Shown: one piece after another, positions 14,061-43,501 of the stretch
Position numbering within the stretch: position 1 is the first letter of the stretch
Layout: the number at the start of each line of letters is the position of its first letter
NCBI RefSeq assembly: GCF_038049935.1
Contig: NZ_CP145886.1
Location: 2,798,501-2,862,500 of the forward strand
DNA from: Rossellomorea sp. y25
GTDB lineage: Bacteria; Bacillota; Bacilli; Bacillales; Bacillaceae_B
DNA: 64,000 nucleotides
Direction of reading: 5' to 3'
Notes under the pieces: generated by a model
Database searches by the model: none
What the model was told of the DNA's origin: nothing
The model's input: the letters and a program-made list of their open reading frames with translations, nothing else
Translations under genes and position numbers: made by a program

Positions 14061-14250
14061 GAAAAGCGGAAGGGGCTCGCCCTGGGGCGACAAGCATAAG
14101 ACGAGTCACCCAGAAAGGCGTTCTTTGCCTTTTTGGGTGACTTGGCTTATGACCTCGAGCCCCAAGCCCCTGTAGCTGGACATCAAGAAAAGCGGAGGCG
14201 GCTTGATAGAGGCGACAAGCATAAGACGAAGTCACACGGAAAGGTAGCCT
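14061..14250 (+). repeat. Structured ~126-bp repeat: one full unit plus a truncated unit
   Basis: A full unit (about 14062-14186) carries the nested arms AGGGGCT/AGCCCCT, TGGGGC/GCCCCA, CATAAG/CTTATG and GTCACCC/GGGTGAC around an AAAGGC hairpin. A second unit begins at about 14187 with GGCGGCTTG and stops after its inner left arm. The element begins 4 bases after the ypzI stop and lies between convergent ypzI and fni. Same family as 27114-27912 and 41857-42222. Confidence 0.9.
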
Positions 14251-14284: not shown

Positions 14285-14440
14285 ATTTGGACAAACAATA
14301 ATTCAGCCGAAGTTCTAAATAATCCGGCCGTTTTGAATGATAATCCAGCGGAAATGGCCAGGAATCAGGCCGATTTGAACTAAAATCCAGCCGTTTTATG
14401 GGTTAATCCAGCCGTTTTACAAAAATACCCAAAATTCACA
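14285..14440. repeat. Degenerate ~20-bp repeats with core AATCCAGCCGTTTT
   Basis: About five imperfect copies of a motif near AATCCAGCCGTTTT follow one another at roughly 20-23 base spacing: AATCCGGCCGTTTT, AATCCAGCGGAAAT, AATCAGGCCGATTT, AATCCAGCCGTTTT twice. No gene overlaps them. The function is unknown. Confidence 0.6.
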
Positions 14441-25163: not shown

Positions 25164-25291
25164 AGTTGATTTCCGCTCCAGGTGCTCGCTTTCCGCGGGG
25201 CGTGAGTTGAGCCTCCTTAGGCTTTGCCCTGCGGGGTCTCAACTTTCCCGCTATTCCCGCAGGAGTCGAGCACCTTCCGCTCCAATCAACT
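25164..25291 (-). repeat. GC-rich palindromic element, copy 1
   Basis: The ends AGTTGATT/AATCAACT and GGTGCTCG/CGAGCACC are inverted repeats. The interior on the minus strand reads GACTCCTGCGGG, then GAGACCCCGCAGG, then AAGGAGGCTC. The flanking DNA is AT-rich, so the element stands out in composition. It resembles sequences I recall as widely dispersed in Bacillaceae genomes, but I know no formal name. Confidence 0.75.
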
Positions 25292-26977: not shown

Positions 26978-27113
26978 GTATGTAAACCTCCCAGTATCCT
27001 TCACTGTTTAACGGAACCTCGTCCGCTTTCATGACATAGTATACACGTTTGATTTCCTCTTGCAAAGAAGGAAAATAAAAAAAAGAAGATTTTTTTGAAA
27101 ACGCTATCATAAA

Positions 27114-27912
27114 CGAAAAGCGGAGGCGGCTTGGGCAGACCCGACAAGCATAAGGCGAGACCACCGGAAAGGCGCTCTTTGCCTTTTTGGTGGTCTCGCC
27201 TTATGACCTCGAGGGGCTAGCCCCTGGAGCTGGACATATCGAAAAGCGGAAGGGTTTCGCCCTGGGGCGACAAGCATAAGACGAGTAACCCGGAAAGGCG
27301 CTCTTTGCCTTTTTGGGTTACTTGGCTTATGACCTCGAGCCCCAAGCCCCTGGAGCTGGACATATCGAAAAGCGGAAGGGGCTCGCCCTGGGGCGACAAG
27401 CATAAGACGAGTAACCCGGAAAGGCGCTCTTTGCCTTTTTGGGTTACTTGGCTTATGACCTCGAGCCCCAAGCCCCTGGAGCTGGACATATCGAAAAGCG
27501 GAAGGGGCTCGCCCTGGGGCGACAAGCATAAGACGAGTAACCCGGAAAGGCGCTTTTTGCCTTTTTGGGTTGCTTGGCTTATGACCTCGAGCCCCAAGCC
27601 CCTGGAGCTGGACATATCGAAAAGCGGAAGGGGCTCGCCCTGGGGCGACAAGCATAAGACGAGTAACCCGGAAAGGCGCTTTTTGCCTTTTTGGGTTGCT
27701 TGGCTTATGACCTCGAGCCCCAAGCCCCTGGAGCTGGACATATCGAAATATCGAAAAGCGGAAGGGGCTCGCCCTGGGGCGACAAGCATAAGGCGAACCT
27801 GCCGGAAATGCGCTTTTGCCTTTTTGGTAGGTTTGACTTATGACCTCGAGCCTCTAGCCGCCGGAGCTGGACACATCGAAAAGCGGAGGCGGCTTGGGCA
27901 GGCCGAGAAGAA
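27114..27912 (+). repeat. Tandem array of six ~126-bp structured repeats plus a seventh fragment
   Basis: Units start at 27114, 27240, 27366, 27492, 27618 and 27744/27752, with a truncated seventh at 27877. The period is exactly 126 bases for the first five steps; the sixth unit is preceded by an 8-base duplication of CGAAATAT. Units 2-5 are almost identical, units 1 and 6 differ in their stem arms. Each has arms CATAAG/CTTATG, an AAGGC hairpin and the conserved flanks GACAAG and GACCTCGAG. Because 126 is divisible by 3, several frames stay open through it, but none looks coding. Confidence 0.95.
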
Positions 27913-27930
27913 ATCACAACAACCATCTCA

Positions 27931-27967
27931 AAAACAAAAAACACTTCCAGGAATCAACCTAAAAGTG
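27931..27967 (-). terminator. Likely terminator after mecB
   Basis: CACTT/AAGTG stem with a 16-base loop followed on the minus strand by TTTTTTG TTTTT. It lies 80 bases after the mecB stop. Confidence 0.55.
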
Positions 27968-28048
27968 CAAAACTTTACCTATTTATCCTATAAATCATAG
28001 TAAACCATATATCTAAAGGGGGTGAAGATTCAGTACCACATACCACGA

Positions 28049-40422: not shown

Positions 40423-40483
40423 TGATAAGGCATACCCGAATAAACGTCTAGCTTCCCTTTTTCTAAACGTTTTGGCATAAACC

Positions 40484-40612
40484 CTCATCTTCTCCCATCC
40501 AGACTATACTGTCGGCTTTGGAATCGCACCAAATCCTGCCCCAAAAGGCTCGCGGGCTTAGAAACAAATGTTTCATCACCGCCGGTAGGGAATTTCACCC
40601 TGCCCCGAAGAC
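40484..40612 (-). ncRNA. FMN riboswitch (RFN element)
   Basis: The minus strand carries the RFN aptamer hallmarks in order: TCTTCGGGGCAGGGTG, AAATTCCCTACCGGCGGTGA, GCCCGCGAGC, GCAGGATTTGGTGCGATTCC, AAAGCCGACAGTATAGTCTG and GGATGGGAGAAGATG, the ends pairing as helix P1. It binds FMN and controls ribU through the downstream terminator. Confidence 0.97.
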
Positions 40613-40638
40613 GAATCTTTATTTTTTTATACATTCTC

Positions 40639-41643: not shown

Positions 41644-41856
41644 GCTTGTCCTCCTTACCCATTTGACGCAATACCTTTATTTCTTCCCGACTGAAGCGAC
41701 ACTACCGCTACCTTTTCACGCATTAAACCATTCTTGCCTTCTCACCTTCATTTCATGCACTCCCCACTATATGTACATGCCCCCTTCAATATTCATAACA
41801 GAATGAGATAATTTTCCTTTGAGTAGTTTGTCTAAGTTTGAGATAAATATACACGG

Positions 41857-42222
41857 AAATGCGGAGCCGACTGATCAGGCCCGACAAGCACTTTGGGAAA
41901 ATGGCAAAAGGCGTACTTTGCCTTATGCCATTTTTCCAAAGTGACCTCGAGGGACTAGGAGGCGCAGCTAGACATCCCAAAAGCGGAGGCGGCTTGGTCA
42001 GCCCCGACAAGCATAAGATGAATTGGCCTGGAAGGCGTCCTTTGCCTTCTTGGCCAATTTAGCATATGACCTCGAGGGGCTGGCCGCCGGAGCTGGATGA
42101 CACAAATGCGGAGGCGGCTTGGTCAGAGGCGACAAGCATAAGTCGAACATGCCGAAAAGGCGTCCTTTGCCTTTTTGGCATGTTTGACTTATGACCTCGA
42201 GCCTCTAGTCGCCGGAGTTACA
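41857..42222 (+). repeat. Three diverged ~125-bp structured repeats
   Basis: Units begin at about 41857, 41979 and 42104. They share GACAAG before and GACCTCGAG after the stem with the family at 27.1 kb but differ in their arms: ATTGGCC/GGCCAAT in the second, ACATGCC/GGCATGT in the third, and a much longer CACTTTGGGAAAATGGC-type arm pairing with GCCATTTTTCCAAAGTG in the first. The block lies between rsiX and the M23 gene. Confidence 0.9.
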
Positions 42223-42227
42223 CATAA

Positions 42228-42274
42228 AAAAAGACCAGAAACGGATTACTTCCCCGCTTCCAGTCTTTCCATCA
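42228..42274 (-). terminator. Terminator after rsiX
   Basis: AAAGACTGGAA and TTTCTGGTCTTT form an imperfect stem followed by seven T on the minus strand, close to the rsiX stop. Confidence 0.7.
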
Positions 42275-42277
42275 CAT

Positions 42278-43501
42278 CTAATTTTCTAAGCTTTTCTTAT
42301 TCGGGCTGATCGGTGTCTCAATTGGTTCGTTGAACTCGAATCCATTCCAGCTTTCCTGCTTAATATTTTCAAATAAAACCCTTTCATAACCGGAGCTTTT
42401 GCTTGTCAGCAATAAACCTTCTATCATCTCCAGAGCTGTGTCCTTATCTAAGGTTTCAATATCCAATTCATTTAAGAAGTTAATGGTTAAATAGTCATCT
42501 GAATCTGAAACACTAATATTGATGTTTTTCGGAATCACACTTTGGAAAAGGTTTTTGTCGGATCTTTTCATTGCTTGAATGGACTCTTTGACATTTCCTC
42601 TGTTTATGTTATCCGGCACAAGGAAGCGTTCTCTACCATTTGGTGAATATAGAAAATATGCCGTATGAACCTCTTCTGTTAGATCGACTTTTGAGAATTC
42701 CCCGGTAGAACTGAATTGCGGAACTGACCCGTCTTGTTCTTGAAGAACCACTTCGTTTAAATCCTGATGTTGAAATGAGTAAAGTAGAGAATGATAAAAA
42801 GCGTATTCCACCGAACTACTCCCACTATACGAATGATCTGCATCCAGAGTGAAGATGACTTTGCGGTCTTCAAGGGTGAATTTTCCTTTCAGGGGAAGAA
42901 AGTCTTCCATTCCCCAGCTTCCTTCAGGTAATACACCGGCAAGTTGTTCGTGTCGGGCCAACCAGCTTTCTTCATCTTCTGCCGGGTCGTCGACTACCGA
43001 GACGGGAACAGGTACCGCTTCGGGAGAAACAAGTCCATAGGAATAGTAGTCCTTTCCTTCCAAGTCTTCTTCATATAGAGATAATCTGTCTTCTGTAAGC
43101 GGTTTAAGGCTTTTTTCAGACTCAGCCATACTTAGCTGATTATTCTCGTTTTCAGTCGTAATTTGCTCCTTGTCAGAGTCTTGAACCATTTCGGAACTTC
43201 CCTCTGATTCTTCTGCCTTTTTCACTGTTATGTCCCTGCCAGATGATTCGGATTTCATTTCAGACTTTCCCATACTATTTTCATTGAATTGATTTAATAC
43301 GGTTGGAGCAAGCATAACCATAATGAATATGGCTGCCAGCGCAGCGACTGTTGGAATTAAACGGTTTAAAGCAAAGAATCTCTTTTTGTTCTGACGCTCC
43401 ATCCTTGCGTAAATTGATTGAGGAGTTCGATCATCTTTGATTCGAGGAAGCTTTTTGACAAGGTCCTCTATATCACGATCTTTCCATTCTGACTGCTTCA
43501 A
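42278..43501 (-). CDS. rsiX: Anti-sigma-X factor RsiX
   Basis: A 407-residue membrane anti-sigma factor. The cytoplasmic N-terminal part (about 1-45) includes DLVKKLPRIKDDRTPQSIY and should bind sigma-X; a single membrane segment follows (about 45-68, LIPTVAALAAIFIMVML); then a long acidic linker and an extracellular GerMN-like domain (about 220-400). The start is TTG at 43499-43501 behind AAGGGGG. It overlaps sigX by 29 bases, so the pair is translationally coupled and the sigma factor and its inhibitor would be made together. Confidence 0.9.
   Translation of the reverse strand: MKQSEWKDRDIEDLVKKLPRIKDDRTPQSIYARMERQNKKRFFALNRLIPTVAALAAIFIMVMLAPTVLNQFNENSMGKSEMKSESSGRDITVKKAEESEGSSEMVQDSDKEQITTENENNQLSMAESEKSLKPLTEDRLSLYEEDLEGKDYYSYGLVSPEAVPVPVSVVDDPAEDEESWLARHEQLAGVLPEGSWGMEDFLPLKGKFTLEDRKVIFTLDADHSYSGSSSVEYAFYHSLLYSFQHQDLNEVVLQEQDGSVPQFSSTGEFSKVDLTEEVHTAYFLYSPNGRERFLVPDNINRGNVKESIQAMKRSDKNLFQSVIPKNINISVSDSDDYLTINFLNELDIETLDKDTALEMIEGLLLTSKSSGYERVLFENIKQESWNGFEFNEPIETPISPNKKSLEN

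What the first reader, a model, noticed from the sequence alone, without database searches (positions are those of the whole stretch)
41857..42222. Paired changes in stem arms between repeat copies point to selected structure
Seen directly: copies at three loci keep GACAAG and GACCTCGAG, while the arms around them change in pairs. Inner arms: GTCACCC/GGGTGAC (14.1 kb), GTAACCC/GGGTTAC and GACCACC/GGTGGTC (27.1 kb), ATTGGCC/GGCCAAT and ACATGCC/GGCATGT (42 kb). Middle arms: TGGGGC/GCCCCA, AGCCCC/GGGGCT, AGAGGC/GCCTCT. Outer arms: GGCGGC/GCCGCC versus AGGGGCT/AGCCCCT. A terminal hairpin of AAGGC with GCCTT is nearly constant. Compensatory change at three levels argues for a conserved RNA or cruciform structure rather than drift. 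I do not recall a named Rfam family that fits, so it may be undescribed. An RNA, a mobile palindromic element or a terminator-like element are all possible.
Basis: partly seen in the sequence, partly recalled or inferred. Interest (0 to 1): 0.85.

Follow-up and report, generated by a model that had tools for sequence, protein, structure and literature searches.

The report
Terminator-hugging mobile hairpin repeat in Bacillales
The window holds three clusters of a roughly 125-letter folding repeat that occurs about 100 times in this genome and in most sampled relatives of its order, keeps its fold while its letters change in pairs, tends to sit beside transcription stop signals, and looks like an unnamed small mobile element whose machinery is unknown.

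Summary
The unit is ~125 nt: GAAAAGC, three nested stems, two constant internal loops (GACAAG, ACCTCGAG), AGCTGGACA. 103 sense matches lie in the own genome. 298 of 397 genomes of the order match its model at E<=0.001, but 6 of 398 in a phylum-wide sample at E<=1e-6. Covariation is strong on an alignment made without the structure and in other genera. G·U outnumbers A·C on the strand as written, so that strand folds. No Rfam family fits.

It behaves as a chromosomal, non-coding mobile repeat: sites are occupied in some relatives and empty in others, units are separated by short copies of the local left flank, and unit number varies. Two placement rules emerged: arrays lie 5' of terminator-like hairpins, and the folding strand tends to point against the replication fork. 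I infer insertion by a single-strand step at forks. The enzyme is unknown: 19 of 36 same-genus genomes lack reverse transcriptase; REP-type transposases co-occur, but no copy lay in 50 transposase loci. An RNA role in 3' UTRs is the main rival.

The parts
41856..41974 (+). Unit 1 of the 42-kb array, short-P3 subtype (GACAAGCACTTTGGG...CCAAAGTGACCTCGAG)
   Evidence: 90.7 bits to model R1
41978..42097 (+). Unit 2 of the 42-kb array; P1 GGCGGC/GCCGCC, P2 AGCCCC/GGGGCT, inner arms ATTGGCC/GGCCAAT
   Evidence: 136.8 bits
42103..42222 (+). Unit 3 of the 42-kb array; P2 AGAGGC/GCCTCT, inner arms ACATGCC/GGCATGT
   Evidence: 141.5 bits
42226..42268 (-). Terminator-like imperfect hairpin (A-tract, AAAGAC...GTCTTT, read on the - strand it ends in TTTTTTT) of the - strand gene 42278-43501, abutting the array's 3' side; similar sequence is kept in relatives
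   Evidence: sequence read by eye; ORF
14061..14180 (+). Single full unit at 14.1 kb, inner arms GTCACCC/GGGTGAC
   Evidence: 140.7 bits
14186..14262 (+). Decayed second unit at 14.1 kb (5' part kept, 3' part lost)
   Evidence: by eye
27115..27876 (+). Six-unit array at 27.1 kb; units 2-5 nearly identical (inner arm GTAACCC), unit 1 GACCACC, unit 6 ACCTGCC; units 1 and 6 have one or two mismatches in the outer stems
27877..27906 (+). 3'-truncated seventh unit closing the 27.1-kb array
   Evidence: by eye

Best explanation
It is a small, chromosomal, non-coding mobile repeat. Shown: the strand reading GAAAAGC...GACAAG...GACCTCGAG...AGCTGGACA folds into one long interrupted stem with two constant internal loops, and this fold is under selection; copies are enriched beside terminator-like hairpins and in one orientation relative to the replication fork, at sites that are empty in some relatives; at many loci units carry short copies of the local left flank between them; unit number changes between species. 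Inferred: the folded single strand is what a protein recognises; insertion takes place on single-stranded DNA exposed at the fork, next to the hairpin of a terminator, and copies a few nucleotides of target; later growth of an array is by tandem duplication and exchange of units; stems stay paired because units that fold badly are not propagated. The mobilising enzyme is not identified; a tyrosine (HUH, RAYT-type) transposase acting in trans is the first candidate, not a proven one.
For: 103 sense matches in the own genome. Sites empty in some relatives and occupied in others: locus L065 has no unit in 3 of 7 relatives (G003, G024, G025), internal-deletion remnants in 2 (G004, G022) and a full unit in 2 (G007, G035); locus L047 has units in 4 of 7 (G003, G007, G022, G035), none in G024 and G025, and at most a remnant in G004. 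The 42-kb site is occupied in G000 and five relatives with 2-5 full units and 14 other orthologues have no match. Spacers match the own left flank: 2.93 of 5 nt against 1.81 permuted, 0 of 5000, 27 arrays. Terminator-like hairpin within 150 nt on the right in 20 of 35 non-nested own arrays against 1 of 35 on the left, control 83 of 1434; in seven genomes of six other genera 22 of 46 against 1 of 46, control 51 of 1130. Folding strand against fork direction in 29 of 35 non-nested own loci; negative local GC skew in 16 of 17 loci of other species of the genus and 36 of 46 in the seven other genomes. G.T against A.C: 74 against 22 in variable columns, 58 against 4 outside the fixed wobble columns in other genera. 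Not in 50,697 phage records; in 1 of 72,556 plasmid records, which carries chromosomal sporulation genes. RAYT genes enriched in genomes with the element (202 of 298 against 29 of 99, odds ratio 5.1, not corrected for phylogeny).
Against: No copy in any of 50 searched transposase loci. 96 of 298 genomes with the element have no RAYT match at the threshold used; G014 has RAYT-like genes but only one weak match to the element. No gene-bearing version in 297 loci, 1.96 Mb. A first sample of other genera showed no strand bias (6 of 13), and within G295 (3 of 7) and G331 (3 of 5) show none; three loci were already in that first sample. The ten copies nested in another repeat run the other way (2 of 10 against the fork, tally). 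The folding strand would be the leading-strand template, opposite to what is recalled for IS608-like elements. No same-species empty site was available, so exact ends are not proven. Most loci recovered in the relative G007 are occupied in both species (10 of 16 with full units), so movement is rare.
Confidence: 0.6

Rival explanations
1. It is a cis-acting RNA: in the sense orientation it is a 3'-UTR element between stop codon and terminator that binds a protein through the GACAAG/ACCTCGAG loop and protects or processes the mRNA end; copies are kept because they are useful.
For: Wobble pairs on the + strand, including three columns that are mostly G.U (340 G.T, 0 A.C), are typical of RNA. With a co-oriented upstream reading frame of at least 100 open codons, the unit starts 0-6 nt after the stop codon in 6 of 12 own arrays and 14 of 28 arrays elsewhere. 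Constant internal loops across genera.
Against: The majority orientation is against the leading-strand genes (29 of 35), so many copies would be antisense or outside the transcript. Copy number, presence and arms differ between related species. G014 has only one weak match. No transcript data were available.
Confidence: 0.2
2. A special case of the best explanation: it is a REP-type element mobilised by RAYT tyrosine transposases, differing from known REPs only in size and tag.
For: Y1 transposase domains in all 36 same-genus genomes; the 19 full-length proteins aligned look RAYT-like, and six of them match NCBIfam NF047646, one above and five below its curated cut-off. Odds ratio 5.1 across the order. 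REPs too lie next to 3' ends of genes (PMC3733652, passages read).
Against: No GTAG or CGTC tag; about 125 nt rather than 20-40; 0 of 50 searched transposase loci have the element (one of them, L306, holds only a weak remnant, and some lie in genomes without the element). By eye, no RAYT type is shared by all element-bearing genomes read (one type in G012 and G013, other types in G023).
Confidence: 0.2
3. It is a short retroelement: an RNA of the opposite strand ending in ...GCUUUU is reverse transcribed at nicked A-tracts after terminator hairpins, as group IIC introns insert after terminators (group IIC rule recalled).
For: On the - strand a unit ends as a hairpin followed by CTTTT (sequence) and often lies downstream of a terminator T-tract. 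Incomplete units are mostly 5' halves: 84 without a 3' half against 23 orphan 3' halves, related loci not removed.
Against: Wobble asymmetry favours the + strand. 19 of 36 same-genus genomes have no RVT_1 match, among them G007 with 92 model matches, the cap of that call, antisense echoes included. No group II intron match in the window.
Confidence: 0.08
4. It is not mobile: an old repeat spread by recombination and by the second repeat family in which some copies are nested.
For: Ten own loci are nested at one site of repeat B and fall into two arm types, so they probably moved with B. Most loci recovered in G007 are occupied in both species.
Against: 35 own arrays are not nested; loci with an empty counterpart exist.
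Confidence: 0.1

Closest known systems
REP / BIME elements with RAYT (GTAG- and CGTC-tagged families)
   Same: Many intergenic hairpins per genome, downstream of genes, paired or clustered copies, constant motif at one foot, Y1-type transposase in the genome (PMC3733652, passages read).
   Different: About three times longer, no GTAG/CGTC tag, two constant internal loops, directly repeated arrays, no copy in the transposase loci searched.
MRSC motifs (mobile/repeat sequence candidates) such as MRSC-65-2
   Same: Long covarying stem, dozens of copies per genome, RNA or DNA form undecided (PMC11109978, passages read).
   Different: MRSC-65-2 is described with a repeated UYCCGG and diverse phyla; this one has GACAAG/ACCTCGAG loops and is nearly confined to one order.
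bcr1-bcr3 MITE-like repeats of the Bacillus cereus group
   Same: Intergenic repeats in Bacillus, often in UTRs (PMC3446304, passages read).
   Different: bcr1 is called specific to the B. cereus group (title of a cited paper, seen); sequences not compared here.
Group IIC introns
   Same: Placement after a terminator hairpin and T-tract on the - strand (group IIC rule recalled).
   Different: No intron core in the Rfam scan, no consistent reverse transcriptase, folding evidence for the other strand.
Bhal-1 stem-loop family of Bacillus halodurans
   Same: Intergenic stem-loop family of a Bacillus species, 36 copies, 74 nt (PMC2267715, passages read).
   Different: Shorter; sequence not available, so identity could not be tested.

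Membership tests
REP (RAYT-associated) | 20-40 nt palindrome with GTAG or CGTC at one end | tested here: not met
   unit ~125 nt with GAAAAGC foot
REP (RAYT-associated) | RAYT gene flanked by the repeat | tested here: not met
   0 matches in 43 loci, 248,098 bases and 7 further loci, 24,885 bases; the 7 overlap loci except L329; the literature also reports exceptions
REP (RAYT-associated) | RAYT present in genomes with the repeat | tested here: inconclusive
   202 of 298 with, 29 of 99 without the repeat
MITE | terminal inverted repeats, no coding capacity | tested here: inconclusive
   ends match as inverted repeats at 10 of 16 positions by eye; no gene-bearing insert in 297 loci
MITE | target-site duplication of fixed length | tested here: inconclusive
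   short flank copies at unit boundaries (27 arrays), but their length varies (about 3-7 nt by eye) and there is no clean same-species empty site
MITE | related autonomous insertion sequence | not tested
Group II intron | Rfam group II intron core | tested here: not met
   window scan finds only an FMN riboswitch at gathering score; 41700-42400 with relaxed threshold gives three hits, all far below gathering score
Known Rfam RNA | match at gathering score | tested here: not met
Structured RNA | covariation beyond shuffles and slid controls | tested here: met
   phylogeny-aware R-scape not available
Structured RNA | transcribed | not testable with these tools
   no RNA-seq

The most novel reading that the evidence does not exclude
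An order-wide family of small selfish elements that moves by a single-strand step at replication forks and uses intrinsic terminator hairpins as landing sites, with an RNA-like folded strand as the recognised form and no dedicated transposase or reverse transcriptase in many hosts; in its boldest form the folded RNA itself guides or templates insertion, a SINE-like parasite in bacteria that borrows host enzymes.
Probability: 0.12. Interest if true: 0.9.

Novelty: new variant of a known kind. Interest (0 to 1): 0.62.

Why it matters
The element matches about three quarters of the sampled genomes of one order and has no Rfam family, so it goes unannotated or is called as spurious reading frames (one search lists ORFs of 182-231 aa inside the 27-kb array). 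If the terminator and fork rules hold, it would be a tractable system for how hairpins at gene ends become insertion sites and how a folded strand stays paired while its letters turn over. It also makes a practical question testable: whether strong hairpins at 3' ends of genes in these genomes are parasites or regulators.

Tried and rejected
First terminator scan too strict (right 10 of 35, left 1 of 35, control 68 of 1430 on either strand); repeated with longer loops, both reported. First spacer test was off register for tail copies (15 of 5000); repeated (0 of 5000 for windows of 3, 5 and 7 nt, 1 of 5000 for 9), where a few rows (L045, L048, L050, L055) are still misregistered. First longest-common-substring test of flanks was uninformative (4.20 against 3.66). 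Reverse transcriptase as required partner rejected. RAYT adjacency rejected. Larger gene-bearing version not found. Phage or plasmid carriage rejected. Weak Rfam hits at 41.9-42.1 kb (animal or plant RNA families by name, far below gathering scores) rejected as chance.

Literature: seven searches for such a repeat and two on RAYT and bcr1 showed no named match; most subscription papers are not held and no supplements could be read.

Limits and dropped rows: placement counts rest on loci that match the strict pattern; loci found only by the model were not fetched. The ten B-nested loci (chosen by eye) were left out of the strand, terminator and spacer counts. Neighbour calls use ORFs of 70 aa or more and are rough. 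In one search at most 8 matches per genome were scored, so it gives presence, not copy number. The model spans 135 nt and neighbours lie 126 nt apart, so miss some tandem units. The genomes were chosen from the best-scoring listed hits, not at random; three of their loci (L355, L359, L364) overlap loci (L214, L213, L216), so share some copies. Copies share ancestry, so the P values are nominal.

Full report
WHAT IS THERE. The interval 41857-42222 holds three directly repeated units of about 125 nt; related units lie at 14.1 kb (one full, one decayed) and 27.1 kb (six full, one truncated). The unit reads GAAAAGC GGA [P1] loop [P2] GACAAG [P3 with hairpin cap AAGGC...GCCTT] ACCTCGAG [P2'] [P1'] GGA GCTGGACA. 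For the five window units folded as RNA on the + strand no shuffle of 200 folds as well (z -5.5 to -8.7); the - strand of one of them gives z -3.7. In two of the five (27111 and 41856, which have one or two mismatches in the outer stems) the predicted fold does not form P1 and P2 as drawn.

IN THE OWN GENOME. The pattern GACAAGC-N55-85-GACCTCGAG occurs 77 times, against 0 for the reversed control; with a slightly looser gap the fetched loci hold 45 clusters. Covariance model R1 lists 103 sense matches of 57 bits or more before the first antisense echo (my count of the listing, which scored 150 of 1082 candidates). The 77 units carry 37 distinct inner arms; 73 of 77 pair at 6 or more of 7 arm positions, 73 of 77 have P2 at 5 or more of 6, 76 of 77 have P1 at 5 or more of 6, and 7 of 77 have any helix below threshold. 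One of them mixes arms of two unit types and looks like a recombinant.

COVARIATION AND STRAND. On a MAFFT alignment not fitted to a structure, 29 of 42 pairs have changes on both sides and every measure exceeds all 500 shuffles and all slid controls. On 55 copies from seven genomes of six other genera (aligned to the model, so leaning towards it) 34 of 41 pairs change on both sides and the score is 0.553 against at most 0.121 when slid. In 157 distinct rows three columns are mostly G.T (340 G.T, 0 A.C); variable columns have 74 G.T and 22 A.C (nominal p 9e-8), conserved columns 17 and 9 (p 0.17); in the other genera it is 58 against 4 outside the mostly wobble columns. A wobble pair on one strand is an A.C mismatch on the other, so the strand as written is the one whose fold is selected. 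That fits RNA or single-stranded DNA; it does not fit a symmetric cruciform.

RANGE. Genus: 36 of 36 genomes match, G014 only by one weak hit of 8e-4. Order: 298 of 397 genomes and 100 of 135 genera at E<=0.001. Phylum-wide sample at E<=1e-6: 6 of 398, of which 5 are of the same order (own genome included) and one is a single match of 1.8e-10 in the same class. Plasmids 1 of 72,556 records, a 690-kb record with chromosomal sporulation genes; phages 0 of 50,697. The genus is probably Rossellomorea, judged only from the strong named hits; no marker was tested.

MOBILITY AND TURNOVER. The 42-kb site is occupied in G000 (3 units), G003 (2), G004, G007 and G022 (3 and a fragment each) and G035 (5 and a fragment) with much the same left flank; the 14 other orthologues read (L234-L247) have no match. 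Locus L065 has a full unit in G000, G007 and G035, none in G003, G024 and G025, and internal-deletion remnants in G004 and G022. Locus L047 has 1, 2, 2, 4 and 6 units in G000, G003, G007, G035 and G022, the six-unit array alternating two unit types, while G004 has at most a remnant and G024 and G025 have none. In the 20 stretches of G007 read, 16 non-nested own loci were recovered: 10 have full units, 3 only fragments, 3 no element, with flanks 81-100% alike, and arms and unit numbers often differ at shared sites (counted by eye). So insertions are mostly older than this species split while arrays change fast, by duplication of one or two units.

ENDS. In the own loci read, arrays begin with a complete 5' end and often stop inside the next unit. 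Over 297 loci there are 84 5' halves without a 3' half, 23 orphan 3' halves and 296 full units, with related and overlapping loci not removed. The few nucleotides before each internal unit resemble those before the first unit of the same array (5-nt window 2.93 against 1.81, 0 of 5000 permutations, 27 arrays).

TWO PLACEMENT RULES. (1) A terminator-like hairpin lies within 150 nt to the right of 20 of 35 non-nested own arrays and to the left of 1 of 35 (control windows 83 of 1434); in seven genomes of six other genera 22 of 46 and 1 of 46 (control 51 of 1130). So the rule is an enrichment: about half of the arrays have no such hairpin by this scan. When a co-oriented open frame of 100 codons or more ends within 300 nt upstream, the unit begins 0-6 nt after its stop codon in 6 of 12 and 14 of 28 cases. 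(2) The folding strand points against fork movement in 29 of 35 own non-nested loci (nominal p 1.2e-4; dnaA lies in the first 6 kb and GC skew flips between 2.03 and 2.60 Mb). Local GC skew on that strand is negative in 16 of 17 loci of other species of the genus, 12 of 17 named contigs and 6 of 13 of a first set of other genera, and in 36 of 46 loci of the seven other genomes (nominal p 1.6e-4; not in G295, 3 of 7, or G331, 3 of 5). Gene orientation is a confounder, since most genes follow the fork; where the neighbouring frames are convergent or divergent, 15 of 17 own loci still point against the fork (my tally; rough frames). Ten copies nested in another repeat family run the other way (2 of 10).

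PARTNER. Reverse transcriptase (RVT_1) matches 17 of 36 same-genus genomes. Y1 transposase domains match 36 of 36; the 19 full proteins read are RAYT-like, and six of them match NF047646, one above its cut-off. Across the order RAYTs and the element co-occur (both 202, element only 96, RAYT only 29, neither 70; odds ratio 5.1, p 3.5e-11, not corrected for phylogeny), yet no copy lies in the 50 transposase loci searched (six of the seven repeat loci).

READING. The simplest account is a non-autonomous mobile repeat recognised as a folded single strand and inserted at forks beside terminators. The enzyme is open. The strongest rival is an RNA function in 3' UTRs. The kind (multi-copy covarying hairpins, REP or MRSC) is known; this family, its loops, its order-wide range and its two placement rules were not seen in the literature searched (listings; passages of PMC8632094, PMC2864571, PMC2267715, PMC3733652, PMC3446304 and PMC11109978 read).

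Noticed in passing
window 25235-25266 (- strand); own genome, 32 pattern hits: A second interspersed repeat family (ACTCCTGCGGGA...GAGACC...CCGCGGAAAGCGAGC) that hosts ten loci of the element at one site; the composites fall into two arm types and seem to spread together.
   Followed up: partly
window 14290-14425; also beside L058 and in L260: Short repeated motif of the type AATCCAGCCGTTTTA in several near copies.
   Followed up: no
window 40483-40616 (- strand): FMN riboswitch (RF00050, 122.9 bits).
   Followed up: no
genome G014: A same-genus genome with only one weak match to the element although it has RAYT-like and reverse transcriptase genes; useful contrast genome.
   Followed up: partly
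window 27107-28000: ORFs of 182-231 aa overlapping the array are probably spurious products of the repeats.
   Followed up: no
NZ_CP089998.1 (Cytobacillus spongiae): A 690-kb linear 'plasmid' record that carries dpaA and a YlmC/YmxH-family sporulation gene and has a copy of the element at its very start; it looks like a chromosome piece broken at the repeat.
   Followed up: partly
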